Below, in pieces: positions 7,971 to 55,756 of a stretch of DNA of 64,000 nt. The DNA is from a virus. Location: positions 1-64,000 of the IMG/VR virus record IMGVR_UViG_3300025087_000054; one strand, given 5' to 3'. A program made the position numbers and the translations under genes. Numbering within the stretch: position 1 is the first letter of the stretch; each line of letters opens with the position of its first letter. Under the pieces are notes generated by a model that was not told the origin of the DNA, did not search any database, and saw nothing but the letters and a program-made list of their open reading frames with translations.

Positions 7971-10358
7971 GTGGCTAAAGCGTTACCTGCAATGTCGGAG
8001 AGTGCTGTTTTAAAAAGTTTGTATAAATCAGATATGGTAAAACGGTTTAGAACTGATATTAAAGATGCATTAGATTGGCAATGGAATGGACTAGCCCAAT
8101 CCAATTTGGTAGATAGTCTGTATGATAGATTTTTGCCTGTATTTGATCGTGTAAGACAGTCTAAAATAAATAATACTATAAATAAATCAAGTCCAACGAG
8201 ACGGGCCTTAAATCAAGCAATTTTATCGGGTAAAATAGAAAGTTTGGATAGGTTTCAGCGGTATGTATACGATAAAGTTACTGGTGAAATGCGAAAAGTG
8301 GGTAATTACTCAGGATATGATATGTCGCCAAAAACTTACTTATATACAGTAATGGAAAAAGGCGGGCAGGATGTTTTAAATAAATATTTGGGTATTGATA
8401 AGGTTCAGTTCAGTTTAACAAACTATGAGATGAAGGTATTAATTGATCAAAGGATTAGAACGCTTGTGAAAGGGGTAGATGATTATACGGCACGAAGATT
8501 TAGTGCACAATTAATAAAAGGTATGGAAAATGGCGAGTCTAAAAAGGAATTGGTAACTAGGCTAATGAATGTCGGTTCGGATATATCGGAGATAAGAGCG
8601 GAACGTATTGTACGTACTGAAACGACCGCGGCTGTTGAGTATATGAGGCACGAAACGGCAAGATTAAATGGGGTACAGTTTAAAACTTGGATAACGTCCA
8701 TGTATGATGTATGTATTGTATGCCGTCCTTTACATGGTCAAACAGTAGCAATTAATCAGATGTTTGATGGCGGGTTTGATATGCCACCGATTCATATTAA
8801 TTGTTTTGATAAGGATACGGAAGTATTAACAAACGAGGGTTGGAAATATTTTAATGATATACGTGGAACAGAGAAATGTTTAAGTGTAGATTTAACTACA
8901 TTGAATAGTGAATGGGTAGATATTAAACATAATATTAAGTATAAATTTACTGGCAATTTGTCTTGGTACAAAAATATTAGTACAGATATTATGGTAACAT
9001 CCGATCATAAACATGTAGTTAAGTTTAGAAAAAAGGCAAAAGGTAGACAGGATGCGGGAGTTTTTAAATTAGTATCTGATAATGAGTTACCAAAGCATGA
9101 TTTTAGTTTGTTAGGCACTATACCTAACTATATAGGAAAAAGTGCAGGTACAATTAAAATAGGGGATATTTTGTTTGATACAGCTACATTTTGTGAATTT
9201 TTAGGTTATTATTTATCAGAAGGTAGTATTACTTTACATAAAGGGCATGGTTGGCAAATTAATATTGCTCAGATTAAGCATAAAGAAATTATGGATAATT
9301 GTGCTAAAAAATTGTTCAAAACAGTATGGATTGGAAAAAAGTGTAGCAATATTCCGATTAAGGATGAGAAGATAGTGTTATGGTTTAAACAATTAGGATA
9401 TAGTTATGAAAAATTTATACCCGACTGTATAAAAGAATTAGCTAAAAAGTATCTTAATATACTTTTAGATGCTTATATTTTAGGTGATGGTCATATACAA
9501 AAAGGTACTTATTGGAAAGGGCATCAGTTTGGTAATAGACGAGCATATTTTACATCAAGTAAACGATTGGCGGATGATATAGGTGAATTGTTATTAAAGA
9601 TAGGAAAACGCCCATCATATAGGTTGCCAGAAAGACCGAAAAGTATAAAATTTAAAAATGGTACTTATTTACAAAAACATACTTGTTGGCGTATATACGA
9701 GAATAATAGTACAATGCCTAATAGGGATGGACTACGTAAAGAAATAGTCCCGTATAATGATTATGTTTATGACGTAGAGTTAGTAAAGTACCATACGTTA
9801 TTTGTTAGACGTAATGGTAAGGTATTATTGAGTGGTAATTGTGTATGTCATTTGGAATACGATTTTGCTAATAGTTTATGTGATCAATACTTATCAGGAG
9901 ATTTTGCAAAAAAATATGATTTTTATGATACGATAGATGCCGATTTTTCAGTTTGTGCAAATCCAGAGATGGTATGGAAAGGTGGAAACGGCGTTATTGG
10001 TAATGATAAATTAGGGTTAGCTTTTGCTACGGCATTAATTACAGTTGATGGTAAAGATCAGTATGAAAAAGGATGGCAAGAATTATCTTGGAATAAATTA
10101 GACGAGTTGGCGGAATATGCCGATGATTTGATTGAGGAATATGGGCAGGAGTTATACAAAGATATAAACAATTTTAGGGCGAAAGCGGAGACGACTATAT
10201 TATTAGATTCAGAGTCAAAATTAGCTTTGATGGGGTTATCAGATGCTCAGTTGCGTTTTGTATTGGCTCGTAGTAAGCTTACGGACGCGGGATTTGCTCA
10301 GTTATATAAAAAGCTAAAGTTTCGTGGACTTGTTAAACCGCGGAACTTTACTAAATAA
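7971..10358 (+). CDS. MuF-like minor head protein interrupted by an intein
   Basis: After splicing this would be a 449-residue Mu gpF/SPP1 gp7-type minor head protein, which sits by the portal and takes part in head assembly and DNA ejection. N-extein residues 1-277 include the helical region TARRFSAQLIKGMENG and the core IRAERIVRTETTAAVEYMRH, DVCIVCRPLHGQTV and MPPIHIN. The C-extein resumes at residue 624 with CVCHLEY, so splicing restores the family's HxxCxC motif. The start is GTG at 7971 in the same A/T leader as neighbouring genes; ATG 7992 is an alternative. The 172-residue C-extein is helical. The gene follows the portal by 11 bp. Confidence 0.85.
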   Translation: MAKALPAMSESAVLKSLYKSDMVKRFRTDIKDALDWQWNGLAQSNLVDSLYDRFLPVFDRVRQSKINNTINKSSPTRRALNQAILSGKIESLDRFQRYVYDKVTGEMRKVGNYSGYDMSPKTYLYTVMEKGGQDVLNKYLGIDKVQFSLTNYEMKVLIDQRIRTLVKGVDDYTARRFSAQLIKGMENGESKKELVTRLMNVGSDISEIRAERIVRTETTAAVEYMRHETARLNGVQFKTWITSMYDVCIVCRPLHGQTVAINQMFDGGFDMPPIHINCFDKDTEVLTNEGWKYFNDIRGTEKCLSVDLTTLNSEWVDIKHNIKYKFTGNLSWYKNISTDIMVTSDHKHVVKFRKKAKGRQDAGVFKLVSDNELPKHDFSLLGTIPNYIGKSAGTIKIGDILFDTATFCEFLGYYLSEGSITLHKGHGWQINIAQIKHKEIMDNCAKKLFKTVWIGKKCSNIPIKDEKIVLWFKQLGYSYEKFIPDCIKELAKKYLNILLDAYILGDGHIQKGTYWKGHQFGNRRAYFTSSKRLADDIGELLLKIGKRPSYRLPERPKSIKFKNGTYLQKHTCWRIYENNSTMPNRDGLRKEIVPYNDYVYDVELVKYHTLFVRRNGKVLLSGNCVCHLEYDFANSLCDQYLSGDFAKKYDFYDTIDADFSVCANPEMVWKGGNGVIGNDKLGLAFATALITVDGKDQYEKGWQELSWNKLDELAEYADDLIEEYGQELYKDINNFRAKAETTILLDSESKLALMGLSDAQLRFVLARSKLTDAGFAQLYKKLKFRGLVKPRNFTK
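8802..9839 (+). mobile_element. Intein with LAGLIDADG homing endonuclease in the MuF-like gene
   Basis: A 346-residue in-frame insertion (residues 278-623). The first residue is Cys in CFDKDTEVLTNEGW (splicing block A), block B is VTSDHKHVV, and the C-terminus is VYDVELVKYHTLFVRRNG...LLSGN followed by Cys. Two LAGLIDADG-like helices are visible (EFLGYYLSEGSI and LLDAYILGDGHI), indicating a homing endonuclease that spreads the element. The penultimate residue is Gly rather than the usual His. The insertion splits the conserved HxxCxC motif, a typical choice for inteins. Confidence 0.88.
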
Positions 10359-10385
10359 ATTATTTTATTATTTAATTATTAAATT

Positions 10386-10781
10386 ATGCCAATAGATGTA
10401 TCACAATGGAAATATAAGGAATTTAGATGCCCTATTACGAATAAGTTACTATGTAAATATAAGGGCGTAGACGGGCAGATAGAGAAAAAGCACCCAACAA
10501 AACAGCATACATATTATTTTGGTCCGCTACGTGAGCATAAAGATAATGGACCAAAAGGGGTAAATTTTGCGAGCAGAGCGGTAACGTTGCGATGTCAAAA
10601 TAAAAATTGTGTACAAGTATTGGCAAAAGTTATCGGGTATGATTTAATATTAAAGGTAGATTGTCATAGATGTGGATTTGAGAATAGATTTGATTTAAAG
10701 GATGTACATAAAGAGCGTGTTAGAGTGTTATCGGAAACTAGTAAAAAAATCTATATACAAAGATTAAAGGAATTGTTTTGA
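10386..10781 (+). CDS. Com-like zinc-finger protein
   Basis: A 131-residue protein. Its start region, FRCPITNKLLCKYKG, is like the CPxCxKxL start of Mu Com-family zinc fingers, and further cysteine pairs follow (RCQNKNC, DCHRCGF). Com in Mu activates translation of the mom DNA-modification gene; many tailed phages carry Com-like proteins near MuF genes. No mom gene is visible here. The other possibility is a small zinc-binding head assembly protein. Confidence 0.55.
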   Translation: MPIDVSQWKYKEFRCPITNKLLCKYKGVDGQIEKKHPTKQHTYYFGPLREHKDNGPKGVNFASRAVTLRCQNKNCVQVLAKVIGYDLILKVDCHRCGFENRFDLKDVHKERVRVLSETSKKIYIQRLKELF

Positions 10782-10806
10782 CAATAGATAAAGTATACAG
10801 TAAATT
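10778..10806 (+). promoter_or_regulatory. Possible promoter TTGACA-17-TAAATT
   Basis: TTGACA (10778-10783) overlaps the stop of the gene before, and TAAATT (10801-10806) follows after 17 bp. The -35 box is a perfect consensus and the -10 box a weak one. It would drive the protease-scaffold and capsid genes through the structured leader at 10832-10900. Confidence 0.5.
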
Positions 10807-10831
10807 TATAGGTGTATAAAAAATTTGTTTG

Positions 10832-10900
10832 TTACGGGCAACTAACCCTGTAGCCTCCAAGAGAGGCCGACTAATATAGATATATAGTTGGTCTTTTATT
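10832..10900 (+). ncRNA. Structured leader with competing hairpins and a T tract
   Basis: Three adjacent hairpins lie between the promoter-like site and the capsid genes. The first pairs 10832-10838 with 10846-10853 (GGG/CCC plus AC/GT, one bulge). The second is GCCTC/GAGGC (10853-10857 with 10863-10867). The third is GGCCGACTA/TAGTTGGTC (10865-10873 with 10885-10893), followed by TTTTATTT. The second and third share bases 10865-10867, so they are mutually exclusive, as in attenuators. The third alone would act as an intrinsic terminator. A ligand or protein signal is not identified. Confidence 0.55.
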
Positions 10901-10925
10901 TAATACTAAATAAAAATTTTATCTC

Positions 10926-13208
10926 ATGTTTAAACTTTTAATCCCAATAATTAAATCAGTTAAAAGTGCTGATCGTAATGTACTTATCGTTGAAGGTATT
11001 GCGTCAGATCCAACTATTGATAGGGACGAAGAAAGATTTAGTGAAGAGGCTGTTAAAAAAATGGCGGAGTCTGTTAATACAAAACAGATCCCAATACGTG
11101 TAGAACACGAAAATAAATTTTTTACGAATGTAGGTGTTTGGAAAACTGCGGAGATGGTGGGGGATAAGTTAAGAGTTACTGGTGAGATTGATTTAGACAT
11201 GTCTTTAGGTAAAGACATACAAGTAGTTTTAAATAAAGGATTGGGTATAGCGTTATCAGTTGGTGGGAGGGTTTTAGATGCAAGTATTGAATATGCACAA
11301 GATTTGGGCAAATCAATACGTGTATATAAGGACATGATATTAGATGAAATATCAGTAGTTTTAAATGCATCAAATAAATCGGCAACTTTGGCGATTGCTA
11401 AGTCGTACGATCCAGATAAACGGCAAGAAACCGCTGAGGCACAAGTATTAGCAGAAACAACAAAACAACTAATAGAAAAAACAGAAAATGAGGTGGATAT
11501 ACGTAAAAGTATATTGCCTTTTTTAATTGTACGTAATAAGAATATAAAGGCGGAGAAAGCAACAATGGAGGAGTTAATGTCAGTAATGTCGGGTGTATTT
11601 GAACGTGGGGTAACAAAATTTTGGGATGATGAGGTATGTAGTGAATATTGTTGTGAAGAAAAGCACGAATTAACACAAGAGGATATAGATTTAATTTGTT
11701 TGATAGTTAGAATAATGCAGGATATTGATGTATCTGAGGTGGTTAAACCAATTGCGTTAGAGGATTGGGATTTTGTGGGTAAATTGCCAGAAGAGAGTTT
11801 TGTAACAAGTTTAGACGGAAAATGGTTTCCGCATCATAATGCTGATTTTACTATTAATATGGAATGGCTAACTTATTGGTTAGCACATTTAGTTTCAGGA
11901 GCGGAAACTTGGCTTAGTCCTGAACAGTATGCGTTAGCATTAGATCATTTATATCATCATTTTAAATACATTACTATGGACAAAAAAATTAAAGCAGATG
12001 TCTCAAAGTCTGAGGCTACAAAGGCTGAAATGACTGGTGCAGAGACTGGCGAGTTATTTACTAAAGAGGTGGTTAGCTTAATGCAATCATCTTACGAATT
12101 TTATGTAAATAAAAGTGGGGAAAGGCCACAAGTGGACGGTAATGACTTGTCCAATACAGAGGTTAAAAGATTAGCGGAAGCGTATAGAACATATACAACA
12201 CGTAAAAGAGCACAGGAAACAGAAGGAGCTAAATTATTAAAACAACTTTGTCCAGATAGTCAGCCAGAACAGGTTACTAAGGACGAAATTTTATCTACTA
12301 ACGAAACGATTATGAAAGCAAAAGCAAAACCAGCTATGGATGCTAAAGCTACGGCAAAAAAACCAGTGATGGATGAAAAAATGACAAAAACTGAGGAAGT
12401 AAAAGAAGAGATTGCAGTTACGAAGGAAGGAGAAGAAGCACAAGTTGAAAATAAAGAGCCTGAAAAGGCAAAAGACGGTTCAGAGGAAGACGCTGAAAAA
12501 GCGGAAAAATCTGAGGCAGATGCGTCTATAAAAAAGGAAGCCGATACAGAAGATGCACCAGCAGACGGTACAGAATCTGAAAAACCATCTTTGGAAGAGT
12601 CTACAGAAACAAAAAAATCTGAGGACGAAGATGAAGATGCGGAATCCGAAGACACCGAAGAGGTGGAAGAGGATGGTGTTGAAAAAGCAGTTAAGGAACA
12701 GGTTACTAAAGCAATTGAGGCAATCAAAATTGAATTGGCAAAAACTGTTGCAGAACAAATTGCGGAAGTAGTTAAGCAGGCTACAGAATCAGCTACAAAA
12801 ATCATAGAGGGAAAAATGGCTGATTTAACAAAACAGTTTCAGCCTAAGATTGACAGTTTAAATAAAGATTTTACTGATTTGAGGGCAAGTGTGTCTCAGT
12901 CAGCGGAAACTTTAACTAAGTCAACGAAGGAAGAAACGGACAGATTTGCTAAAGTGGAGGGGAGTTTAGAAAAAATAACAAACACCATTGAAGTATTTGG
13001 TAAATCCGTATTAGGACGTAAAAGTGTAGCATCAGCTGAAATACGCAAAGCATTTGTACAAGATATTGTTGCAAAGGGAGATAGTAAAGATTTAACGGTT
13101 GGGCAACAAATTGATTCTTTAGTAGCAAAATTTGTTGATGAGGACAAAATGTTATGGCGAGATGCGTACTCAAAAGCAAAAAAGCAGGTATATGCTATTG
13201 AAGAATAG
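10926..13208 (+). CDS. Prohead protease-scaffold fusion protein
   Basis: A 760-residue protein combining two head-assembly functions. Residues 1-165 resemble the phage prohead protease/XkdF group (VEGIASDPTIDRDEERFSEEA, IPIRVEHENKFFTNVGVW, ALSVGGRV, LDEISVVLNASNKSA). Residues about 195-350 hold a helical insert with DGKWFPHHNADFTINMEWL, a pattern often found behind such proteases. Residues about 450-690 are highly charged and coiled-coil-like (E-, K-, A-rich), as in scaffolds that fill the procapsid and are then cut. Internal ATGs at 11976 and 12312 could give separate scaffold, as in lambda C/Nu3. It is placed just before the capsid gene, as expected. Confidence 0.7.
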   Translation: MFKLLIPIIKSVKSADRNVLIVEGIASDPTIDRDEERFSEEAVKKMAESVNTKQIPIRVEHENKFFTNVGVWKTAEMVGDKLRVTGEIDLDMSLGKDIQVVLNKGLGIALSVGGRVLDASIEYAQDLGKSIRVYKDMILDEISVVLNASNKSATLAIAKSYDPDKRQETAEAQVLAETTKQLIEKTENEVDIRKSILPFLIVRNKNIKAEKATMEELMSVMSGVFERGVTKFWDDEVCSEYCCEEKHELTQEDIDLICLIVRIMQDIDVSEVVKPIALEDWDFVGKLPEESFVTSLDGKWFPHHNADFTINMEWLTYWLAHLVSGAETWLSPEQYALALDHLYHHFKYITMDKKIKADVSKSEATKAEMTGAETGELFTKEVVSLMQSSYEFYVNKSGERPQVDGNDLSNTEVKRLAEAYRTYTTRKRAQETEGAKLLKQLCPDSQPEQVTKDEILSTNETIMKAKAKPAMDAKATAKKPVMDEKMTKTEEVKEEIAVTKEGEEAQVENKEPEKAKDGSEEDAEKAEKSEADASIKKEADTEDAPADGTESEKPSLEESTETKKSEDEDEDAESEDTEEVEEDGVEKAVKEQVTKAIEAIKIELAKTVAEQIAEVVKQATESATKIIEGKMADLTKQFQPKIDSLNKDFTDLRASVSQSAETLTKSTKEETDRFAKVEGSLEKITNTIEVFGKSVLGRKSVASAEIRKAFVQDIVAKGDSKDLTVGQQIDSLVAKFVDEDKMLWRDAYSKAKKQVYAIEE

Positions 13209-13244
13209 CAAGTTATTTATTAACAATTTAAAAATTTAATTTTT

Positions 13245-14210: not shown

Positions 14211-14238
14211 TTTGCACATTAAATAATTGTTCAGTTCA

Positions 14239-14354: not shown

Positions 14355-14382
14355 GTATTTAATACTTAAAATCTTAATTAAT

Positions 14383-31730: not shown

Positions 31731-33572
31731 ATGAAATCAACAGCAATAGCAGTCAAAGGCCCAGCTTATTTGCAACAGTATAATGATTTGCGGGAGGATG
31801 CCAAAGGAGGTTCATATTTAAGAGCCTTTGCTCAAAATACTCCAAATATGACTGTAAAAATTATGGACGGGCATTGGGTAACGGGTGATGGGGTACTTGT
31901 TGAATGGGCCGAAGGTAATTCGGGTACTATTACAGCACCAATTACGAATGACAGAATAGATTTAATAAGTATGGACGATACAGGAGCTTTAACGATAACA
32001 GCAGGGTCTGAATCGGCTACGCCAGTAGTTCCAGTAGTTCCAGCAGGCGAAATACCATTATGCCAAATATATTTACGTCCTGGATGTACTGAAATATTAG
32101 ATACGGATGATAGTGCAGAGGCATATATAATAGACGCAAGACCTATATTAAGTTTGGGTAGTAGTTTGGAGTTAGGTGAAACTAGTTCAACTGCATATAG
32201 AGGAGACAGGGGTAAGACTGCATATGACCATAGTCAAGTAGTTACAGGGAATCCACATGGTACAAGCAAGACTGATTTGAGTTTAGGTAACGTTACGAAT
32301 GATGCACAGCTTAAAATAGCAAGTAATTTATCAGACTTAGCAAATGTAACTACAGCAAAAACAAATTTAGGGTTAAATAATCTTACAAATGATGCACAAT
32401 TAAAAATTGCATCAAATTTATCTGATTTAGCCAGTGCAACAACTGCTAGAACTAATTTAGGGTTGGGCAATTCAGCAACAAAAGACGTAGGTACAGCTAC
32501 AGGAACAGTGATGGCAGGAGACGATTCAAGAGTAGTAAATGCAGTACCAAATACTAGAACAATAAATAGTAAAGCATTATCTTCAAATATTTCAATTGAT
32601 AAAACTGACGTAGGATTAAGCAATGTAACAAATGATGCACAGCTTAAAATAGCTAGTAATTTATCGGACTTAAATAATGCGGGTACTGCTAGAACTAATT
32701 TAGGTTTGGGGAATGTAAGTAATGATGCCCAATTAAAACGAGCCGCAGGGGATTTTGTGTCATTTACAGAAAAAACTAGTTTAGATGGGGATGATTTATT
32801 TTTAGTTGAAGATAGTGTGGATAGTAACAATAAGAAAAAAATTAAAAAAAGTGTTATTGCTAAAATGACTCAAGCACCCTTGTCAATAGTATTGCCATAT
32901 TATTGTAATGGAACAGGATACATGTGCCCAAGAGCATTAGATTCCATTAGTAAGCTTCCAGGTAGACAGGATAGTAGCGGGGGATTTAGTTTGCACATAA
33001 AAATATATGCAAAAGGTAGTAATTATCAAGATAGAACAGTAACTAGTGATTGGGCATCGGCTACTGACATATATGGCTGGTGTATAATAGGGGATTATGT
33101 ATATGTCTTATTAGTAAATAGTCCTTTTACTGCGTATAGGCTATATAGGTATGCTAAGAATAATTTAGCAGCTGGCGGTACATTAATGCCATATACATTT
33201 GGCACTACCAATGGGAATTCGCATATGTTTACAGATGGTACATATTTATATTTTACGAATAGAGCGGGCTTTACAACAACAAGTTATAACATAAGACAAT
33301 TAACTATTAACGGAACGGCATTAGATTCCGCTGTTGATTTTAGTTTAAGTGATTCACTTGATGTTAGTGGTGGTGTTATTGGAGCAGATTCTTTAAATAT
33401 ATATGCAGTAGGAAGTGGAACATTGTATAAGTATAATTTAAGTGGCGTCGCACAGTGTAATCAATCACTATATGGGTCAAATCCCGCTGGGATGGTTATG
33501 TATACAGATATAGATGCATGCTATATGATGTGTGACGTAAGCCCAGATTTTTTGGCTAGATGTTTAATTTAA
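31731..33572 (+). CDS. Tail fibre with repeated shaft motif
   Basis: A 613-residue protein. The N-terminal 150 residues (AYLQQYNDLREDAKGGSYLR, ENSG..., AGEIPLCQIYLRPG) form the baseplate attachment. Residues about 175-345 hold the repeat LGNVTNDAQLKIASNLSDLA-xx-TARTNLGLGN, about four times, typical of tail-fibre shafts. The C-terminal 230 residues (YCNGTGYMCPRALDSI, SKLPGRQDSSGGFSLHIKIY, YLYFTNRAGFTTTSYN) are a likely receptor-binding domain with beta-propeller-like short repeats; I do not recognise the fold. It defines the host range. Confidence 0.72.
   Translation: MKSTAIAVKGPAYLQQYNDLREDAKGGSYLRAFAQNTPNMTVKIMDGHWVTGDGVLVEWAEGNSGTITAPITNDRIDLISMDDTGALTITAGSESATPVVPVVPAGEIPLCQIYLRPGCTEILDTDDSAEAYIIDARPILSLGSSLELGETSSTAYRGDRGKTAYDHSQVVTGNPHGTSKTDLSLGNVTNDAQLKIASNLSDLANVTTAKTNLGLNNLTNDAQLKIASNLSDLASATTARTNLGLGNSATKDVGTATGTVMAGDDSRVVNAVPNTRTINSKALSSNISIDKTDVGLSNVTNDAQLKIASNLSDLNNAGTARTNLGLGNVSNDAQLKRAAGDFVSFTEKTSLDGDDLFLVEDSVDSNNKKKIKKSVIAKMTQAPLSIVLPYYCNGTGYMCPRALDSISKLPGRQDSSGGFSLHIKIYAKGSNYQDRTVTSDWASATDIYGWCIIGDYVYVLLVNSPFTAYRLYRYAKNNLAAGGTLMPYTFGTTNGNSHMFTDGTYLYFTNRAGFTTTSYNIRQLTINGTALDSAVDFSLSDSLDVSGGVIGADSLNIYAVGSGTLYKYNLSGVAQCNQSLYGSNPAGMVMYTDIDACYMMCDVSPDFLARCLI
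32281..32740 (+). repeat. In-frame repeats in the tail fibre gene
   Basis: The segment AATGATGCACAGCTTAAAAT recurs in variants at about 32299, 32388 and 32634, with a fourth degenerate copy near 32723. Spacing is irregular (about 90 and 245 bp). The repeats encode the shaft motif NDAQLKIASNLSDL. They may recombine and so vary fibre length. Confidence 0.7.
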
Positions 33573-34711: not shown

Positions 34712-36712
34712 ATGAGCAAAAAATTTGCCCAGCTATTGTCTGGGCTACAAAAAAAGTATGGGCAAGGATCAGTCGAGCTTTATTCCGAAATGGATAGGGC
34801 GGATGTTACTCGTATCTCGACAGGCTTGCCATCAGTAGATTTTATTTTAGGAGGGGGCTTGCCAGAGGGGAGGATAATTGAGATCTATGGCCCCGAAAGT
34901 TCAGGCAAAACGAGTTTGTCGATTATGTTTTTAGCACAGGTACAAAAAAAATATCCTAAAAGCGGAGTAGCATTTATTGATGTAGAACATGCACTCGATC
35001 CAGATTACGCACAGCAATTAGGATTAAATATGGATGAACTAATACTAAGCCAACCAGATAGTGCGGAACAGGCTTTAAATATTATGAATGAGTTAGCGGC
35101 ATCGGGCGAAATCAAAGCCATAATATTGGATTCAGTTGCCAAATTAGTCCCACGAAAGGAGGTGGAGGGCGAGGTAGGAGACGCCGAAATGGCAATGAGA
35201 GCTAGATTAATGGGGCAAGCATTACGTAAAATAGTCCCGAATGCAGATAAAAATAAATGTACGTGTTTTTTTATTAATCAAGTACGTAATAGTGTAGGGA
35301 TAACCTATGGGTGTCATCACGCAGATAATATTATTTATTTTGATGATGGACGAAAAATTAAAATCAGGGATGTGGTCAATAAAAAAATAGTTGGTAATAT
35401 TATAGCTTGGGATGAAAAAACTAATAAATATGTAACAGCACCCATAATAAATTGGTTTAATAATGGTAAAATAACCGATAAGTCTGAATGGATAACTATA
35501 CGTATGGAGGGTATTGATAGTACAAATGGTGTAAATGCCATAACGGTTACAAAAAATCATAAATTATTGACACAACGTGGTTGGGTTGAGGCTCAAAATA
35601 TTATAATTACAGATAAAATACATGCATGTATTAATGATAGATTACAAGGCACTTTAGCTAAACAATTTATGTATGGGGTATCTGTTGGGGATAGCTCAAT
35701 TAGAACAACAGGAAAAAATAAGTTTTTATTAAAACTACAGGATATTAAAAACAAGGATTATGTGTATTGGAAAGCAGATAAGCTACACATATTAGGATTT
35801 GATACTACTATAAAAAATAAAAAAAGACTTATAAGTCGTAGTGGGCATGATCTAGCTAATTTTAATTATCAACGTAATCCTATGGACATTATCGATAAGT
35901 TAGATTGGTTAGGTTTTGCAATATGGTTAATGGACGATGGGCATTTAGATTTAGATAATTATCATTGTAGATATGCGTTATCTATAGGTCGGCTAAAGGA
36001 TGATAAGGACGCACTAAGAAAAATAGTACAATCATTTACAGAGAGTTTTAAAATAACACCAGAATTACGGAAAGATGGTTTATTAATTTTTTCAGCAAAA
36101 GATTCTCGTAAAATTGCCCAGCATATATGTACATATATACCAGATAGTATGCAGTATAAGTTACCAGTTCAGTTTAGGGGTAGATATATTGATTTTAATT
36201 TGGAGACTGCAAGTATAAAAAAAGAGTATTTTACTAGTATTATATCTATAGATACGAATAGTGCACGTAAGTATAGGAATAAAGATAAATATGATATTGA
36301 GGTAAAAGATTATCATAATTATATATGTGATGGTATTGTAGTGCATAACTCACCAGAATTGAGACCTGGCGGGCGGGCATTGCCTTTTGATGCAAGTGTG
36401 ATATTACGTACAAGTTTTAAGCAAACAACAGATGAAAAAATTGGTGAAACAAAAATAATGGTTAAAAAAAATAAGGTAGGTAAACCGTTTCGATCAACAA
36501 CAGTACAGATTGAATACGGTAAAGGATTTAATGTACTACAGGATACGATTACAATGGCATTGACTGCTAAGGTAATTACGCAAAAAGGAGCTTTTTATTA
36601 CTTTGGCGATAAGCAATGGCAAGGCCAAGACGCAGTAAGACAAGCGATTGCAGATGATCCAAAGCTTGCAAAAGATATTATTGAGATTATACATAACTCA
36701 ATAGTTACATAA
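34712..36712 (+). CDS. recA: RecA recombinase interrupted by an intein
   Basis: After splicing this is a 320-residue RecA, slightly shorter than bacterial RecA (about 350), which forms filaments on single-stranded DNA and drives strand exchange. N-extein residues 1-200 include TGLPSVDFILGGGLPEGRI, the Walker A GPESSGKTS, and VALDPDYAQQLG-like sequence with the catalytic Glu in FIDVEHALDP. The C-extein starts with SPELRPGGRALPFDASVIL, which is the L2 loop of RecA, and ends with a short C-terminus. It sits behind its own promoter and before the recombination genes. It could support recombination-dependent replication or lysogeny repair. Confidence 0.92.
   Translation: MSKKFAQLLSGLQKKYGQGSVELYSEMDRADVTRISTGLPSVDFILGGGLPEGRIIEIYGPESSGKTSLSIMFLAQVQKKYPKSGVAFIDVEHALDPDYAQQLGLNMDELILSQPDSAEQALNIMNELAASGEIKAIILDSVAKLVPRKEVEGEVGDAEMAMRARLMGQALRKIVPNADKNKCTCFFINQVRNSVGITYGCHHADNIIYFDDGRKIKIRDVVNKKIVGNIIAWDEKTNKYVTAPIINWFNNGKITDKSEWITIRMEGIDSTNGVNAITVTKNHKLLTQRGWVEAQNIIITDKIHACINDRLQGTLAKQFMYGVSVGDSSIRTTGKNKFLLKLQDIKNKDYVYWKADKLHILGFDTTIKNKKRLISRSGHDLANFNYQRNPMDIIDKLDWLGFAIWLMDDGHLDLDNYHCRYALSIGRLKDDKDALRKIVQSFTESFKITPELRKDGLLIFSAKDSRKIAQHICTYIPDSMQYKLPVQFRGRYIDFNLETASIKKEYFTSIISIDTNSARKYRNKDKYDIEVKDYHNYICDGIVVHNSPELRPGGRALPFDASVILRTSFKQTTDEKIGETKIMVKKNKVGKPFRSTTVQIEYGKGFNVLQDTITMALTAKVITQKGAFYYFGDKQWQGQDAVRQAIADDPKLAKDIIEIIHNSIVT
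35312..36349 (+). mobile_element. Intein with LAGLIDADG homing endonuclease in recA
   Basis: A 346-residue insertion (residues 201-546) after ITYG and before SPEL in the RecA L2 loop. It starts with Cys (CHHADNIIYFDDG), has block B VTKNHKLLTQRGW, LAGLIDADG-like helices (FMYGVSVGDSSI and LGFAIWLMDDGHL), and ends KYDIEVKDYHNYICDGIVVHN with the usual His-Asn before Ser+1. The first block is somewhat unlike the other two inteins. Bacterial recA is a frequent intein host; a phage-borne recA intein is less common. Confidence 0.9.
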
Positions 36713-49420: not shown

Positions 49421-49670
49421 TACTTGTATTAAATGTGGTCAAAATATATTGGATAAAGCTACAGTGTTTGATTTTATGTTGATTGACGATATCGGATTAA
49501 AGTTATTTGAGGTAAGTAAAGTAACTGTGCGTACGAGTCATTTGGTTACAGGTAAAGATACTGTAATATGTTGCTCATTACAATGTGCAAGGGCATATTG
49601 TTATAGTATAATAGATGATTTTTTGGGGGAGTTACGGCCACCGATAGGGCGAAAAAATATTGTAAATTAA
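49413..49670 (+). CDS. Zinc-ribbon protein, 85 residues
   Basis: ATG 49413 gives MSNTCIKCGQNILDKATVFD with a first CxxC, and VICCSLQCARAYCY with another Cys cluster: a zinc ribbon or treble-clef. It may act in DNA or RNA binding. It sits in front of the SSB-like gene. Confidence 0.55.
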   Translation: MSNTCIKCGQNILDKATVFDFMLIDDIGLKLFEVSKVTVRTSHLVTGKDTVICCSLQCARAYCYSIIDDFLGELRPPIGRKNIVN

Positions 49671-49695
49671 ATTTTTATTTTTTAATTTTTATTTT

Positions 49696-50613
49696 ATGTC
49701 TGATGAACTCAGCTATGTTGCACCCTCGCAAAAAAGAGGTGAAACGCTCCGTCCAGCGTTGGAGTTTGCTCCATTACAAGACGAATCTTATATTGCTAAA
49801 ATTGTGGGTATGTCTTTGAGACATAAGCCAGGGTTTAAGCAAACAAAAGCGGGCAAGTGGTTTATGGATTTTAGCCAGCCAAAACCTATTTTTGACGTGG
49901 TTTTAGCTATTTATAAACGTAAAGCCGAAGATGGTATTTTAGATGTAAATGGACAGGTAGTAAAACCGTTATTAAGGCGAGTAAATATTGAGATAAGTGC
50001 ATTATCACCAGATTTTAAGAAAGATAAAGCACCTACATTATCAAGATCCTTATTATGTTATGCTACCAATCAGGAAGTGTCTGGAGCTATTAAGACACCA
50101 GTTCCAGTTTTTTATAATACTATAAAGAGATGTTTTGCTAGTGCAGACAGTGCAAAAAAATACGATACTGATTTACGTAAATTATTTAAGGGAGAAAGTC
50201 CTAAGCTTAAAACGTATGCCGATATTGCTGGGTATAAGGAAGGTATACGGCATATTTGGGATTTGAGAAAATTAGTTGGTCGTTATGTTGGTGTACATTT
50301 AATTGTGAATGGTGATTTTAATAAGGCATACGATTTTTCAAGAGTACCAGAAACATTTAAGGCAGATTTGGAAATAGAACAAAAAGGTCTCGAAAAACTA
50401 GAGGAATCAGAGAAAAAACGGATAGAACGTGTAAGAGCAAGAGAGGAACGGGAGGGATTTACTATTGATATACAGAATGAAGAGTTAATAGGGCAACAAG
50501 AACTTAGTCAGGAATCTAGTAAGGTTGTTGATGCGGGTAACGATGGTGTGGTGGATAATTTGACTGATACAGTTGAAAATGAGACTATTGAGGTAGAAAA
50601 TATTGATTTTTAA
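49696..50613 (+). CDS. SSB-like protein with acidic tail
   Basis: A 305-residue protein that may be the single-stranded-DNA-binding protein. Residues about 30-240 contain beta strands (RRVNIEISALSP, VGRYVGVHLIVNGDFNKAYD) and helices, a possible OB fold with insertions. The C-terminal 60 residues are acidic and end in TIEVENIDF, like the acidic, hydrophobic tip of SSB or gp2.5-type proteins that recruits partners. It lies between primase-helicase and nucleases. No catalytic motif is visible. The call is inference. Confidence 0.45.
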   Translation: MSDELSYVAPSQKRGETLRPALEFAPLQDESYIAKIVGMSLRHKPGFKQTKAGKWFMDFSQPKPIFDVVLAIYKRKAEDGILDVNGQVVKPLLRRVNIEISALSPDFKKDKAPTLSRSLLCYATNQEVSGAIKTPVPVFYNTIKRCFASADSAKKYDTDLRKLFKGESPKLKTYADIAGYKEGIRHIWDLRKLVGRYVGVHLIVNGDFNKAYDFSRVPETFKADLEIEQKGLEKLEESEKKRIERVRAREEREGFTIDIQNEELIGQQELSQESSKVVDAGNDGVVDNLTDTVENETIEVENIDF

Positions 50614-50626
50614 TCTATATAAAACT

Positions 50627-50893
50627 ATGTCAAAGAAAAAAAATAAATTTGGTGAGTATGTGTCAGATACAGATAGTGAAATAGTAGAGGAACAGGTATT
50701 AGTTAATAATATATCGAGTATGGAAAATATATTAGATAATGGCCAATCAGTTAAGGAAACTATAGAGGAACAAAAATTAGTACCAAAAACAATAAAAATT
50801 GATCCAATGGAATTAAAATTTACGCCTGTGGTAGTAAAACCCAAAAAATTACGCCCAGGCGTAAAGTCGGGAGTACAAATTAAAGCAGTTTAA
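50627..50893 (+). CDS. Hypothetical acidic protein, 88 residues
   Basis: A probably disordered protein with a basic start (MSKKKNKFGEY), an acidic middle (SDTDSEIVEEQVLVNNISSM) and a basic end (PKKLRPGVKSGVQIKAV). It starts 13 bp after the SSB-like gene. It may be an adaptor of the replication machinery. Confidence 0.5.
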   Translation: MSKKKNKFGEYVSDTDSEIVEEQVLVNNISSMENILDNGQSVKETIEEQKLVPKTIKIDPMELKFTPVVVKPKKLRPGVKSGVQIKAV

Positions 50894-50895
50894 AA

Positions 50896-51276
50896 ATGGC
50901 TTACGCAAGAATTACATATCGAGCAGTTATTAATATATTAGTCCAGACAGGTAAATTGTCCGCGGATAAAGCAATGGAAGTGGCGGATGCGGTGTTTGAT
51001 TTATTGGAAAAGGAAAAACCAGTGCTACAAACACCGCAGGTATTAAATAATATAGGATCAGATCGGGTGGATGAAAATCATGTGGTAAAAGTAAAAGAGA
51101 CGGACAATAAAAATAAGACTGTTTTAACTGTACATAGTAGTTTGACTGGTGGTAAACCAACACCACAAAAAGTAGTTAAGCCACAAGGGTGTGGTTATGT
51201 GAATAAAAAAGGTGAGTTTGTGCCGACATGGAAAAAACTAACAACGCTTGACCCGTTTAAAGATAATGGAAAATAA
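50896..51276 (+). CDS. Hypothetical protein, 126 residues
   Basis: A protein with a helical N-terminal part (VINILVQTGKLSADKAMEVA, then VFDLLEKEK) and a disordered basic rest (KPTPQKVVKPQGCGYVNKKG). No family is recognised. It overlaps the HNH gene by 11 bp. Confidence 0.45.
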   Translation: MAYARITYRAVINILVQTGKLSADKAMEVADAVFDLLEKEKPVLQTPQVLNNIGSDRVDENHVVKVKETDNKNKTVLTVHSSLTGGKPTPQKVVKPQGCGYVNKKGEFVPTWKKLTTLDPFKDNGK

Positions 51277-51637
51277 TTTAGATATCGGCATATCAGAGGG
51301 TACAGCGGAGTGGTTATTAGGTAAACAAAGGCGGTGTGTAGAATGTGGTTCAGTTAATAGGGAGATACATCATCGAATATATAGGAGTCAGTGGAGTCAG
51401 GAATATATAAATAATTTTTTTGGAATGGCATTTGTCGTATATGAACAGTGTTATAAAAAAGTGTTAATTATTTGGGGATTACATTCAGTTCAAAATTTAG
51501 TGTGCTTATGTAATAAATGCCATACAAGATTACATAGTGGTAATGCTCCAATGTTGGCTAAAAAATATAGATTAAGTTTTACGTGTCCTAGAACAGGGTA
51601 TAATGTATTTTATAAAAAACGAGTATGTCATTATTAA
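51266..51637 (+). CDS. HNH endonuclease-like protein
   Basis: A 123-residue protein with a zinc-stabilised HNH fold: RRCVECGSVNREIHHRI (first C pair and HH), then the core NLVCLCNKCHTRLHSG (second C pair and catalytic His). The segment between is a little longer than usual. It may act as nuclease in DNA processing or as a free-standing homing enzyme. It overlaps the RuvC-like gene by 13 bp. Confidence 0.68.
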   Translation: MENNLDIGISEGTAEWLLGKQRRCVECGSVNREIHHRIYRSQWSQEYINNFFGMAFVVYEQCYKKVLIIWGLHSVQNLVCLCNKCHTRLHSGNAPMLAKKYRLSFTCPRTGYNVFYKKRVCHY

Positions 51638-52104
51638 ATAAAACATTGTTGGCGATTGATCCAAGTATAAATAAACTTGGGGTGGCTGTATTTAAAGGGC
51701 GGAAAATGGTTTTTTGTAGCACATTAACTACTAAATTAGAGGGGGATAATAGATATGTGGAAATCACGTTAAAAATTAAGGAGTTGATTAATAAAGTCAA
51801 GCCAGATGTTTTTGCTATTGAGACGCAATATATGAGCTTTCAGAGTAATGCGGCGTTTAAAATTGCCGAAGTGAAGGGTATATGTAGGGCATTATTTTTA
51901 TCTTTTAATAGTTCAGGGCAAATGATAGATGTTGGCCCAAGCGAGGTAAAAAAAGTAATGGGTATGCCAGGCAGAACAAAAAGAAAAGAAGCTAAAATAT
52001 TATCAGTTCAATTTGCGAAAGATAATTTTGGTATAACGGTGGACGATAATCAGTCCGATGCTATAGGTATAGGTATGGTGGCGTTAGCTAAAATAAGACT
52101 ATAA
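51625..52104 (+). CDS. RuvC-like Holliday junction resolvase
   Basis: A 159-residue resolvase that cuts four-way junctions before packaging. It has LLAIDPSINKLGVAVF with the first catalytic Asp, VFAIETQYM with the Glu, FKIAEVKGICRALF, VGPSEVKKVMG, and DDNQSDAIGIGMVAL with the final acid pair, all in RuvC order and size. The genes upstream are replication genes. Confidence 0.82.
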   Translation: MSLLNKTLLAIDPSINKLGVAVFKGRKMVFCSTLTTKLEGDNRYVEITLKIKELINKVKPDVFAIETQYMSFQSNAAFKIAEVKGICRALFLSFNSSGQMIDVGPSEVKKVMGMPGRTKRKEAKILSVQFAKDNFGITVDDNQSDAIGIGMVALAKIRL

Positions 52105-52130
52105 TTTTAAATAAGATCAAGCCCAAAAAC

Positions 52131-52158
52131 TTTACAAATTATAATTAAAATATATAAT
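52131..52158 (+). promoter_or_regulatory. Promoter, TTTACA-16-TATAAT
   Basis: TTTACA (52131-52136) and TATAAT (52153-52158) lie 16 bp apart after the RuvC-like gene, with the preceding CCCAAAAAC a variant of the family block. It drives the gene at 52185. Confidence 0.8.
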
Positions 52159-52184
52159 GTATATGTAATTAATTTTTATTGTTT

Positions 52185-52505
52185 ATGAGAAAAAGGCAAA
52201 TTAATAAGCATAGTTATTTTTATTTAATTGCTATTTTATTTGTTATAGGTTTGGTTAGCAGTATAAGTTATAAATCTAGCTCGGCAGTTAGTTATACATG
52301 TACGGATTTTTATGTACATATTTTTCAGGGTAAGTATTTAGGGGAATGGCCGATAGATAATATTAGAGCAGGGGATAGTTTTAAAATATCAAATACAGAG
52401 GAGTATATTATTAGTTATGGGGATACTTGGAGTAAATTAGTTAGTAAATTTGGTTTAGATAATATTAAAAAATATAATTGTTATGAGTTTATTAGTAAAA
52501 AATAG
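52185..52505 (+). CDS. Membrane-anchored small protein, 106 residues
   Basis: It begins MRKRQINKHS followed by a hydrophobic segment (YFYLIAILFVIGLVSSISY), like a signal anchor, then an external part of about 75 residues with two Cys. This places the bulk of the protein outside the cytoplasm. No family is known to me. It overlaps the next gene by 23 bp. Confidence 0.5.
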   Translation: MRKRQINKHSYFYLIAILFVIGLVSSISYKSSSAVSYTCTDFYVHIFQGKYLGEWPIDNIRAGDSFKISNTEEYIISYGDTWSKLVSKFGLDNIKKYNCYEFISKK

Positions 52506-52980
52506 CGATGTTCGTGTAATTTTACGTAACTGTTTAGATAGTATTCAGTTTGATTTAGAAGGCGGTGTAGCTAGGATGACAGAACACAATGGGCTAGTGG
52601 TGGGCAATTTATTATATAAGTTACGGGAATCTGTGCGTATAGAGGTAACAGAAGGTAAATCACCGTATGCAACTAAATATGTTATGTATATAGTACTATC
52701 TAATGATACTGTTCAGATAAGAGATAATAGTATACCAAGTAGTAAACATGGTAGTTGTTTAAGAGGTATTTTTACAGAGTCTTGCAGTAATAAGTTTTTT
52801 GTGGCAATAGATAGAGTAGGTAGTTTTGAGTTTGCAATAAATGACATGGAGTTGTATGCAGAATATGTAGCTGAAAAATTATATTTAAATGATAATATGG
52901 GAAAGTCAAGGACGGTACGAGATACGGCAAATTTTTTAAATGGTATTCGTAAATTTTTATTACAAAATGCAATTACGTGA
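52483..52980 (+). CDS. Hypothetical protein, 165 residues
   Basis: An alpha/beta protein with no recognised motif (MSLLVKNSDVRVILRNCLDS, later RVGSFEFAINDMELYAEYVA). Its end overlaps the helicase start by 14 bp. It lies directly before the helicase, so it may be a partner. Confidence 0.45.
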   Translation: MSLLVKNSDVRVILRNCLDSIQFDLEGGVARMTEHNGLVVGNLLYKLRESVRIEVTEGKSPYATKYVMYIVLSNDTVQIRDNSIPSSKHGSCLRGIFTESCSNKFFVAIDRVGSFEFAINDMELYAEYVAEKLYLNDNMGKSRTVRDTANFLNGIRKFLLQNAIT

Positions 52981-55756
52981 TTATCAAATTAAGTGTATTA
53001 ATAGTATTGCTAGTGCTATTAAACGAGGAGTACGGCGAATGGTGATTGAGTTAGCAACAGGTTTAGGGAAAACTATAATTTTCGCACAATTACCACAACA
53101 AGTCAAGCGATCAGGTAAAAAGACATTGGTTTTAGCACATCGGGACGAGTTGTTACAGCAGGCTAAAGATAAAATTTTAGCTATATCGCCAGAATTATCT
53201 GTTGAGATAGAACAAGGAGGTAATAAAGCAGAACCAGATGCTGATGTAATAATAGCGTCCGTTCAGACATTAGGGCGTAAAGAATCAAAACGAATACAAA
53301 AATTTAATCCAGGTCATTTTGGGTTAGTAATAGTTGACGAATGCCATCACTCCTGCTCTAGTAGCTATTTACATATACTTGAATATATGGGCTGTTATAG
53401 TAAGGAGGGAGACGAGCTGAATAAGTGTCCTGTGTTATTAGGCGTAACAGCAACACCAGAACGGCATGATGGGCAGGGATTAGATAAAGTGTATCAGGAA
53501 ATAGTATTTAGGTATGGGCTACAGGAAGGTGTGCAGAACGGGTATTTAGCTCCAATTAAAGCGTATACAGTGCGAACCAATGAGGATTTAAGTGGTATTA
53601 AATTACGTAACGGTGATTTTGCGGTAGAGGAGTTAGCAGAAACTGTAAATTGTCCTGTACGAAATAAAATAGTTGTGGATGCTTATACTAGATTAGTAAA
53701 AGGAGAGCCAGCAATAGCTTTTGCGGTTGATGTACAGCACTCAGAAGATTTGGCTGAGTTATTTAGGCAAAATAAGTATACGGCTCAGTCAGTTACGGGC
53801 AATACTGATACAGAAACACGGCAACAAATAATGTCGGATTTTAGGGCAGGTAAATTACAAGTACTTGTTAATTGTATGGTTGCCACAGAGGGGTTTGATT
53901 GTTTAGACGACAAGACGGAGATACTAACTGATGTAGGGTGGGTGGGTATATCTAATATGGAGAAGGCTAGTAACTGTTTTAGTCTTAATCTTGAAGAAGG
54001 TGTTATAGAAATTGTTCCTATATTAGCGAGGGGTAAACGACCATTAAAAGTAAGTGAGCGTATGGTAGAGTTTAAAAATCAACATTATAATTTGAGAGTT
54101 ACAGAGGGGCATAGTATTTATATTAAAGGTAGAACTAAAGGGCATGTGGGTAAAAATTGGATGTGTAAGTCAGCAAAGGAATTGGTAGAGAGGTTGGGTG
54201 TATTTGCTTTACCTATGAGTGGCGATTATTGCAGTGAGAATAGTTTAGGTGTTTTACTTAGTGATGAGGAGTTGCGTATTATAGCTTGGTACATAACGGA
54301 CGGGTATTTGTCAAAAAACAATAGAGCATTATGTGTTTATCAAAGTTGTTCATCAAAATATAATAAAAGGTATGTGGTAGAAATAGAGGAATTATTAGTG
54401 TCTTTAGGGTGGGATTATGGTAAAAGAGTTAGATATAGTGGTAGAACGGCGTATAAGAAAGAAACTATTATGATGGAATTTAGAATACCGAAAGGAACAT
54501 CACGGATTAGCACTAGAATGCGTACTGGGTATAATAGTTTAGAAAAGTATCTTAAAAAGGAATTATCAGAAGAATTAATGTTAATGTCCCCACGGCAATT
54601 TTTATTGTTTTGGAAGGAGTTATTAAAAGGTGATGGGTGTGGGTATAAGGCTAACGGTGAAAAACGATCTTGGTTATGCACTAGTAATAAGTTATTAGTG
54701 GATAGAATACAAGAGTTAGCGATTAGGTGTGGGTTTGCTACATCTGTTAATTTATCAAAAGCTACAATAACGGGTAAGGATATATGGTATTTAACGGTAC
54801 GAGAAAAAAAGTTTTTATGCACACAAGCTAGAAAAGTTAAAGATGAAGGTAGGCATATTGCGTATAGTAGTGTAGTTAAGAACGAAAACGTGTGGTGTAT
54901 GGAGAATAAGAATAAAACGTTAGTTGTTCGCCGAGAAGGAAAAGTGTCTATTATAGGGAATTGTCCAAGGATTAGGGCGGTGTTATTTGCTAGACCCACA
55001 AAATCAAGTGTTGTGTATAAACAACAGGCGGGTAGAGGCACAAGATTATTTGCAGGTAAAGATCATGTAAAATTTATCGATTTTGTGGATAATATGGAAA
55101 GGTATGATTTATGTTCAGCGTCTACGTTAATAGGGCTTAATCAGCCTATTCAGGCTAATGGGGAGGATTTATTTTCAGTAAAAGACAAGTTTGAAGAGTT
55201 GCTTGCTAGTAATCCTATGGTAAATGTGTTTGATGTTAATATAAATAATATTGATAAATTAATTAAGGAGGTAAATATATTTGCTTTAGCACAATTAACT
55301 ACGGAGGTACAAAAATTTAGTAAATATAGTTGGAATAAGTTTATGGAAGGGTATCGTATAAGTTTAGGAGCAAAAGACGATGAACGGGACTTTGCCGAAA
55401 TACGTGAAAATATGCTAGGGCAGTATGAGGCTGTATTTTACAGTTTAAAAGCGATTAAACCATCTTTCATCAATGGGTATAGTAAAACACAGCGTATGGA
55501 TAAGTTTAGGGCAACTGGGGCGGACAAGGTAAGTGCTTTGCAAAAAGCGGATAGTATAATTTATAGTAATTTTGATGATCGTATTAATTTGGTTAAACAA
55601 AATGCGGGTTGGCGGAGTGATGGTGTTACTGATAAACAAAAAGTATTATTAATAAAATTTGGTCATCGGGAGTCTGATGTGGTTAAATTAACGAAAGGGC
55701 AGGCGAGTATTTTATTAGATAAATGTTTTTCAGAACGCTCACGTCGTAAAAAATAA
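52967..55756 (+). CDS. Superfamily 2 DEAD/DEAH helicase interrupted by an intein
   Basis: After splicing this is a 575-residue superfamily 2 helicase. ATG 52967 is the natural start (MQLRDYQIKCINSIASAIKR). Motif I is ELATGLGKTIIFAQ, Ia LVLAHRDELLQQAK, II VIVDECHHSCSSS, III GVTATPER, IV AIAFAVDVQHSEDLAE, V TEGFD then CPRIRAVLFARPT, and VI YKQQAGRGTRL. The C-extein (residues 666-929) has an additional helical domain. It should unwind DNA or RNA in replication or recombination. The intein splits motif V. Confidence 0.88.
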   Translation: MQLRDYQIKCINSIASAIKRGVRRMVIELATGLGKTIIFAQLPQQVKRSGKKTLVLAHRDELLQQAKDKILAISPELSVEIEQGGNKAEPDADVIIASVQTLGRKESKRIQKFNPGHFGLVIVDECHHSCSSSYLHILEYMGCYSKEGDELNKCPVLLGVTATPERHDGQGLDKVYQEIVFRYGLQEGVQNGYLAPIKAYTVRTNEDLSGIKLRNGDFAVEELAETVNCPVRNKIVVDAYTRLVKGEPAIAFAVDVQHSEDLAELFRQNKYTAQSVTGNTDTETRQQIMSDFRAGKLQVLVNCMVATEGFDCLDDKTEILTDVGWVGISNMEKASNCFSLNLEEGVIEIVPILARGKRPLKVSERMVEFKNQHYNLRVTEGHSIYIKGRTKGHVGKNWMCKSAKELVERLGVFALPMSGDYCSENSLGVLLSDEELRIIAWYITDGYLSKNNRALCVYQSCSSKYNKRYVVEIEELLVSLGWDYGKRVRYSGRTAYKKETIMMEFRIPKGTSRISTRMRTGYNSLEKYLKKELSEELMLMSPRQFLLFWKELLKGDGCGYKANGEKRSWLCTSNKLLVDRIQELAIRCGFATSVNLSKATITGKDIWYLTVREKKFLCTQARKVKDEGRHIAYSSVVKNENVWCMENKNKTLVVRREGKVSIIGNCPRIRAVLFARPTKSSVVYKQQAGRGTRLFAGKDHVKFIDFVDNMERYDLCSASTLIGLNQPIQANGEDLFSVKDKFEELLASNPMVNVFDVNINNIDKLIKEVNIFALAQLTTEVQKFSKYSWNKFMEGYRISLGAKDDERDFAEIRENMLGQYEAVFYSLKAIKPSFINGYSKTQRMDKFRATGADKVSALQKADSIIYSNFDDRINLVKQNAGWRSDGVTDKQKVLLIKFGHRESDVVKLTKGQASILLDKCFSERSRRKK
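53900..54961 (+). mobile_element. Intein with LAGLIDADG homing endonuclease in the helicase
   Basis: A 354-residue insertion (residues 312-665). It starts at the Cys of CLDDKTEILTDVGW, has block B LRVTEGHSIYI, two LAGLIDADG-like helices (RIIAWYITDGYL and FWKELLKGDGCGY), and ends VWCMENKNKTLVVRREG...SIIGN before Cys+1. The penultimate residue is Gly rather than His. The insertion is behind GFD in motif V, where other helicase inteins are also found. Block A is similar to that of the MuF intein. Confidence 0.88.

What the first reader, a model, noticed from the sequence alone, without database searches (positions are those of the whole stretch)
8802..54961. Three LAGLIDADG inteins in three unrelated essential genes of one phage segment
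Seen: in-frame insertions of 346, 346 and 354 residues in the MuF-like head gene, recA and a superfamily 2 helicase gene, each with splicing blocks A, B, F and G and two LAGLIDADG-like helices. Known: inteins sit at conserved active-site motifs because loss there is costly. Inference: the phage belongs to a lineage repeatedly invaded, and virion assembly, recombination and helicase activity all depend on protein splicing.
Basis: partly seen in the sequence, partly recalled or inferred. Interest (0 to 1): 0.75.

Follow-up and report, generated by a model that had tools for sequence, protein, structure and literature searches.

The report
Three homing inteins in one phage
This phage carries three self-removing protein insertions, in a head protein, RecA and a helicase, each at a place where some other phages carry an insertion too; they are of a known kind, but the head-protein site proves to be a recurrent target for several insertion types.

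Summary
Three in-frame inteins of 346, 346 and 354 residues lie at 8802-9839 (MuF head protein), 35312-36349 (RecA) and 53900-54961 (SF2 helicase). Joining the flanks restores one unbroken family match in each gene. Catalytic residues and both LAGLIDADG acids are present; models of the MuF and helicase inteins match solved intein endonucleases best. The nearest relative found for each sits at the same codon of the same gene in another phage, not elsewhere in this one: three separately acquired, site-faithful homing-type inteins. The MuF and helicase inteins belong to one distant family with an unusual Gly-Asn end; the RecA intein is apart. Three inteins per phage has precedent in print, and two records met here look to hold five and three. 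Splicing, DNA cutting and essentiality are inferred, not shown. The most interesting result lies outside the window. The MuF site (PPxHxN|C) is occupied in dozens of viral contigs by at least three dissimilar intein groups, and by natural split inteins whose two genes overlap as ATGA. I found one brief printed mention of an intein in a minor head protein and none of a hotspot, opening few of the papers listed. The window's inteins are new members of a known kind.

The parts
7971..8801 (+). MuF N-extein (head morphogenesis / minor head protein)
   Evidence: Pfam Phage_Mu_F; PHROG head morphogenesis
8802..9839 (+). MuF intein, 346 aa, Cys1 to Asn346, +1 Cys; Hint plus LAGLIDADG endonuclease
9192..9224 (+). 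MuF intein LAGLIDADG helix 1 (ends ...LSEG)
   Evidence: alignment A1, acid in 9 of 9 rows, Gly invariant
9459..9491 (+). MuF intein LAGLIDADG helix 2 (ends ...LGDG)
   Evidence: alignment A1, acid in 8 of 9 rows, Gly invariant; LAGLIDADG_3 match
9840..10358 (+). MuF C-extein, begins CVC
   Evidence: joined Mu_F match reaches profile position 111 of 112; no PHROG match on its own
34712..35311 (+). RecA N-extein, ends ...ITYG
35312..36349 (+). RecA intein, 346 aa, Cys1, ends His-Asn, +1 Ser
   Evidence: Intein_splicing and LAGLIDADG_2
35663..35695 (+). RecA intein LAGLIDADG helix 1 (Asp127)
   Evidence: invariant in 5 of 5 rows
35906..35941 (+). RecA intein LAGLIDADG helix 2 (Asp208, Asp209)
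   Evidence: invariant in 5 of 5 rows
36350..36712 (+). RecA C-extein, begins SPELRPGG
52940..53899 (+). SF2 helicase N-extein, ends ...ATEGFD (motif V)
   Evidence: motif name recalled
53900..54961 (+). helicase intein, 354 aa, Cys1 to Asn354, +1 Cys; Hint plus LAGLIDADG endonuclease
54272..54304 (+). helicase intein LAGLIDADG helix 1 (ends ...ITDG)
   Evidence: alignment A1
54605..54637 (+). helicase intein LAGLIDADG helix 2 (ends ...KGDG)
   Evidence: LAGLIDADG_3 match 54605-54835
54962..55756 (+). SF2 helicase C-extein, begins CPRIRAV
   Evidence: continues PHROG phrog_16 at position 558, N-extein ends at 557

Best explanation
These are three bifunctional, homing-type inteins. Each is translated inside its host protein. 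The Hint fold then cuts itself out (Cys1 attacks at the upstream junction, the chain moves to Cys or Ser +1, the last Asn cyclises), leaving an intact MuF, RecA or helicase. The internal LAGLIDADG endonuclease cuts, or in the past cut, the same codon of intein-free alleles in co-infecting phages, and repair copied the intein in. Each intein lineage stays faithful to one site, so the three arrived separately, not by copying inside this phage. Shown: in-frame insertion, restored host domains, catalytic residues, fold models (MuF, helicase), same-site relatives, intein-free alleles in distant relatives. Inferred: splicing, DNA cutting, direction of transfer.
For: Exact boundaries and restored host domains. 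Cys1, TxxH in block B and final Asn invariant in both alignments. PDB profile hits: A1 to PI-PkoII 1e-9, TliVMA intein 2e-9 and splicing-only inteins from 1e-4; A2 to PI-MtuI 1e-6. MuF model pLDDT 82, pTM 0.83, top 15 PDB matches all intein endonucleases, Z up to 24.5; helicase model pLDDT 72, pTM 0.74, PI-SceI first. Same-site best relatives; a nine-row tree sets MuF-site and helicase-site rows on two sides of a 98/98 branch. Intein more alike than joined exteins: MuF 46 vs 29% and 37 vs 24%; helicase 38 vs 31% and 35 vs 27%; RecA against Erwinia and Yersinia phage UvsX 35 vs 23% and 34 vs 24%. RecA site uninterrupted in 72 of 80 fetched RecA loci.
Against: No splicing or cutting was measured. 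Pfam's splicing model misses the MuF and helicase inteins. Penultimate Gly instead of His, and block F Cys in the helicase intein, are atypical, though shared by relatives. RecA intein block A departs from its relatives (CHHADN against CLHADT, CLHGKT, CLHGST). Against L067 and L080 the RecA intein (34%, 31%) is less alike than the joined exteins (39%, 35%), so transfer is not shown there; one RecA C-extein stretch (36 residues, Erwinia phage) is 42%. The extein alignments for MuF cover only 131-167 columns. In the tree one of six inner branches is starred, three are open, rows of no group fall on both sides, and 47 of 500 label shuffles cluster as well.
Confidence: 0.93

Rival explanations
1. 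A variant of the best explanation rather than its opposite: splicing is intact but one or more endonucleases no longer home, so the inteins are now inherited vertically and kept only because exact loss is rare.
For: Same-site inteins are 31-46% identical, i.e. long separated; the relative L167 has lost one acid (LGNG) in helix 2; RecA intein and extein are similarly diverged against L067 and L080.
Against: Both LAGLIDADG acids are kept in all three window inteins; MuF and helicase inteins are more alike than their host proteins; low G+C of the MuF and RecA inteins (5th and 3rd percentile of equal-length windows) fits foreign origin, the helicase one (61st) does not.
Confidence: 0.3
2. The inserts are bacterial-intein-like or other Hint processing domains that cleave rather than splice.
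For: Pfam's splicing model is silent for MuF and helicase inteins; penultimate Gly is unusual; the MuF model also matches BIL domains (Z about 15).
Against: All three end in Asn followed by Cys or Ser, which BIL domains typically lack (recalled); the model matches intein endonucleases better (Z 18.0-24.5); the host domain resumes at once downstream.
Confidence: 0.05
3. Assembly artefact joining phage genes to intein fragments.
For: Metagenomic record.
Against: Separately listed contigs from sample 3300002727 hold the MuF intein (L003, 5,678 bases, 100% identical) and the RecA intein (L004, 99.7%) with flanks, though the window may come from that same sample; frames and junctions are exact; same-site inteins occur in contigs of other samples. 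No such second contig was met for the helicase intein.
Confidence: 0.01

Closest known systems
Phage RecA/UvsX inteins at FG|SPE (Erwinia phage pEa_SNUABM_17, Yersinia phage fHe-Yen9-02)
   Same: same codon, full-length homologous intein, 35% and 34% identity
   Different: joined host recombinases only 23% and 24% identical; both of those proteins carry what looks like a second intein further on (read by eye)
Mycobacteriophage inteins in terminase, portal, helicase and others (PMC5050341, passages)
   Same: phage genes for packaging and DNA metabolism
   Different: the passages I read name no MuF or RecA intein in phages
Gordonia phage Belphegor portal intein and Bacteroides phage BF766P4 intein
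   Same: same BLAST group as the MuF and helicase inteins, 25% identity to the helicase one
   Different: other genes and sites
Pectobacterium phage CB7 with three inteins (PMC7344957, passages)
   Same: three inteins in one phage, one in a helicase, LAGLIDADG type in two
   Different: genes are helicase, NrdA and NrdB; splicing untested there too
Intein in the minor head protein of phage variant AB09 (PMC7468147, passages)
   Same: an intein in a minor head protein, seen as variable between samples
   Different: 0.8 kb; site and family not stated in the passages read
PI-PkoII, TliVMA, PI-PfuI, PI-SceI (solved intein endonucleases)
   Same: Hint plus LAGLIDADG architecture
   Different: archaeal or yeast hosts, 9-19% identity
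M. tuberculosis RecA intein (PI-MtuI)
   Same: RecA host; splicing domain related to the RecA-site profile
   Different: insertion site differs (the Mtu site lies about nine residues downstream; recalled)

Membership tests
Intein | in-frame insertion whose removal restores the host domain | tested here: met
   all three
Intein | Cys or Ser at position 1, TxxH in block B, terminal Asn, Cys/Ser/Thr at +1 | tested here: met
   all three; penultimate residue is Gly in MuF and helicase, His in RecA
Intein | Hint fold | tested here: met
   models for MuF and helicase; RecA by sequence profile only
Intein | splices and ligates exteins | not testable with these tools
   needs expression
Homing intein (LAGLIDADG) | two LAGLIDADG helices with catalytic acids | tested here: met
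   all three
Homing intein (LAGLIDADG) | intein-free alleles at the same site | tested here: met
None is a close relative of this phage
Homing intein (LAGLIDADG) | cuts the intein-free target | not testable with these tools
   needs enzyme assay
Class 3 intein | lacks Cys/Ser at position 1 (definition recalled) | tested here: not met
   Cys1 present in all three, despite block F Cys in the helicase intein
Split intein | two separate genes | tested here: not met
   window inteins lie in single frames; met by other contigs at the MuF site
BIL domain | no terminal Asn plus Cys/Ser +1 (recalled) | tested here: not met

The most novel reading that the evidence does not exclude
The C-terminal PPxHxN|C motif of the MuF head protein is a convergent insertion trap: at least three dissimilar intein groups, and natural split inteins whose two genes overlap as ATGA, have settled on the same codon in many phages, so that maturation of a virion assembly protein depends on protein splicing in cis or in trans. 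Splicing may gate head assembly.
Probability: 0.55. Interest if true: 0.62.

Novelty: new member of a known kind. Interest (0 to 1): 0.45.

Why it matters
The window gives three inteins with intact catalytic residues for splicing and homing tests. It also points to a wider pattern: the MuF site is one codon held by several intein groups, by mini-inteins too short for an endonuclease, and by split inteins. That allows a direct comparison of why inteins choose a site and how split inteins arise. The split forms, with overlapping and probably coupled genes, are candidates for new trans-splicing tools.

Tried and rejected
Close relatives by pattern search: the MuF N-extein and the MuF intein found only contig L003, identical to this phage (1 locus each); helicase N-extein and helicase intein found none. 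Intragenomic copying was considered and rejected, because each intein's nearest relative found is at the same site elsewhere. A zinc-site gate at the MuF motif (CxxC...HxxCxC) was considered: CxxC occurs within 75 residues upstream in 49 of 71 MuF-site rows, and of seven intein-free MuF relatives two show CxxC with the His-Cys motif and one more shows PPxH alone, so I do not claim it. Literature searches for MuF inteins: 'intein' with 'MuF' 0 papers, with 'head morphogenesis protein' 0, with 'minor capsid protein' and 'phage' 11, with 'minor head protein' 2. Of these 13 listings I opened passages of three (PMC3556154, PMC12403621, PMC7468147); only PMC7468147 was seen to report one, the rest I know by title and abstract start. 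The A1-to-A2 profile comparison (probability 93, 192 columns) aligned shifted blocks, so I draw only weak kinship from it. The first attempt to read relatives' loci found no files, repeated.

Full report
WHAT IS THERE. The window is 64,000 bases of a 74,893-base viral record. The long genes run on the plus strand and include a portal, a MuF protein next to it, a major head protein, a tail sheath, RecA, a DnaB-like primase-helicase and a RuvC-like resolvase.

THE INSERTS INTERRUPT THE HOST DOMAINS CLEANLY. Removing them turns broken family matches into single or longer ones: Phage_Mu_F 34.2 to 40.1 bits, RecA two stretches to one, Helicase_C 45.4 to 61.6 bits. In PHROG phrog_16 the helicase halves end at position 557 and resume at 558. 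The sites are PPIHIN|C in MuF, ITYG|S in RecA and ATEGFD|C in the helicase.

THEY ARE INTEINS WITH ENDONUCLEASES. Position 1 is Cys, block B has TxxH, the last residue is Asn and +1 is Cys or Ser. Both LAGLIDADG helices keep their acid in all three. Profiles of relatives hit solved inteins: PI-PkoII, TliVMA and splicing-only inteins for the MuF/helicase family, PI-MtuI and two mini-inteins (DnaX, DnaB) for the RecA family. A model of the MuF intein (pLDDT 82, pTM 0.83) finds intein endonucleases as its best PDB matches (TliVMA E 1e-15; PI-PkoII Z 24.5 over 301 residues, rmsd 5.2). A weaker model of the helicase intein (pLDDT 72, pTM 0.74) finds PI-SceI first (E 6e-10). The RecA intein was not modelled. 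Atypical points: MuF and helicase inteins end Gly-Asn; block F reads VYD in MuF and VWC in the helicase. Pfam's Intein_splicing model sees only the RecA intein.

WHERE THEY CAME FROM. In an all-against-all comparison of 61 inteins, the MuF intein is closest to MuF-site inteins L128 (46%) and L100 (37%), the RecA intein to RecA-site inteins of Erwinia and Yersinia phages (35%, 34%) and contigs L067 and L080 (34%, 31%), the helicase intein to helicase-site inteins L167 (38%) and L166 (35%). Between window inteins, only MuF and helicase match (24%, E 7e-6). A tree of nine rows separates MuF-site from helicase-site inteins (98/98), but three rows from other genes fall among them, three of six inner forks are open and 47 of 500 label shuffles cluster as well, so the sites are not closed clades. 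Inteins exceed joined exteins in identity for MuF (46 vs 29%; 37 vs 24%), helicase (38 vs 31%; 35 vs 27%) and RecA against the Erwinia and Yersinia phages (35 vs 23%; 34 vs 24%), which favours horizontal spread; for RecA against L067 and L080 they do not (34 vs 39%; 31 vs 35%). G+C of the MuF and RecA inteins is low for the phage (5th and 3rd percentile), that of the helicase intein is not (61st).

INTEIN-FREE ALLELES. Of 80 RecA loci fetched, 72 read through the site (one of them only eight codons before its contig ends... as far as SPET), 6 hold an intein there (one is the same phage; four, L080-L083, give near-identical alignments), and 2 lose frame before it. The best helicase relatives in the phage collection, Tunturi_3 and Tunturi_4 (33%), match in one piece, and the TEGYD motif of Tunturi_4 is uninterrupted. 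A Salinibacter phage helicase has an intein five residues upstream of this site (NYGVL|...|TEGYNDP). Against a strict motif: of seven intein-free MuF relatives found by similarity, only three matched my PPxH patterns.

THE MUF SITE IS A HOTSPOT. A degenerate DNA pattern for PPxHxN|C followed by an intein start found 71 stretches in viral contigs. In all but L142 (unrelated) and L133 (contig ends after nine codons) an intein-like sequence follows in frame, by eye. The upstream stretch, up to 140 residues, matches Phage_Mu_F in 66 of 71 (E up to 0.01). 49 of 71 are complete single-frame inteins by script, 35 of them distinct at 90% identity, the window's own (L003) included. Of the other 22, 11 run off the contig (L133 among them), 8 are split, one has a single in-frame TAA (L122), one has a broken frame (L105), one is unrelated (L142). 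The same pattern in genome contigs gave 13 stretches; 2 (L179, L180) are MuF inteins that repeat viral loci (L136 and L112), the other 11 are unrelated, which shows the chance level. By BLAST grouping (E under 1e-10, 60% cover) the 49 fall into three groups: 43 of 272-366 residues, 3 of the window's LAGLIDADG family, and 3 that include 128- and 130-residue mini-inteins. Of the 49, 33 end Ser-Asn, 13 His-Asn and 3 Gly-Asn. The pattern fixes the site, so it cannot measure how often MuF is invaded.

SPLIT INTEINS AT THE SAME SITE. In seven loci, five of them distinct (L104/L161, L107, L113/L140, L139, L164), the frame stops inside the intein at TGA and the second half can start at an ATG overlapping that stop (ATGA); in L118 the halves are about 695 bases apart. 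The second half carries an HNH domain in the four distinct cases scanned (L113, L107, L139, L104; E 8e-11 to 3e-8) and ends HN|C; in L164 a nuclease match below its cut-off lies in the first half. The identical overlap in unlike sequences argues against sequencing error. Split inteins with endonucleases are known as fractured genes (Dassa 2009, seen only in reference lists, and recalled); I could not read that paper, so I cannot say whether it lists MuF.

HOW UNUSUAL IS THREE. Not very. CB7 has three (PMC7344957, passages), Zeta crAss-like phages up to three (PMC7886860, passages). Here, record G003 (RecA-site intein, 83,956 bases) shows four by profile, in RecA, a DNA polymerase III-like protein, a helicase and an epimerase-like protein, and a fifth by eye in the polymerase; G010 (helicase-site intein) shows three by profile. 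Host genes of these were named by eye from the translations.

VERDICT. Observation confirmed; interpretation partly supported; new members of a known kind, with a side finding of greater interest than the finding itself.

Noticed in passing
L104, L161, L107, L113, L140, L139, L164, L118: Natural split inteins at the MuF PPxHxN|C site; in seven loci the two genes overlap as ATGA, with HNH in the second half (nuclease-like sequence in the first half of L164); in L118 the halves lie apart.
   Followed up: partly
71 viral-contig loci L003, L096-L165: The MuF site is occupied by at least three dissimilar intein groups, including mini-inteins of 128-130 residues (L125, L151).
   Followed up: partly
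window 5850, 15293, 36726, 38654, 49162, 52125, 56434, 58270, 59037, 59726, 62142: AAAAACTTTACAAA occurs 11 times (one with a mismatch), all on the plus strand, 0.28 expected; copies seen (49162, 52125, 56434) are followed by a TATAAT-like stretch, so it looks like a repeated phage promoter element.
   Followed up: no
L122: LAGLIDADG-type MuF intein with a single in-frame TAA: decayed allele, error or recoding.
   Followed up: no
G003 (L308, L317), G005 (L316), G010 (L315, L318): Other phages with several inteins, including in epimerase-like, ribonucleotide-reductase-like and UDP-glucose-dehydrogenase-like genes (host genes by eye).
   Followed up: partly
L084 (BF766P4), L093 (cr53_1): Intein starts after SDH or SGH in a short peptidase-like phage protein (by eye); in BF766P4 it groups with the MuF and helicase inteins.
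   Followed up: no
window 32283-32738: Internal direct repeats, up to 123 bases at 77% identity, in a tail-fibre-like gene with repeated NLSDLxxATTARTNLGL-like units.
   Followed up: no
window 48518, 51625, 52483; L094 1089: Several small genes begin with MSLL(V), suggesting a shared start region.
   Followed up: no
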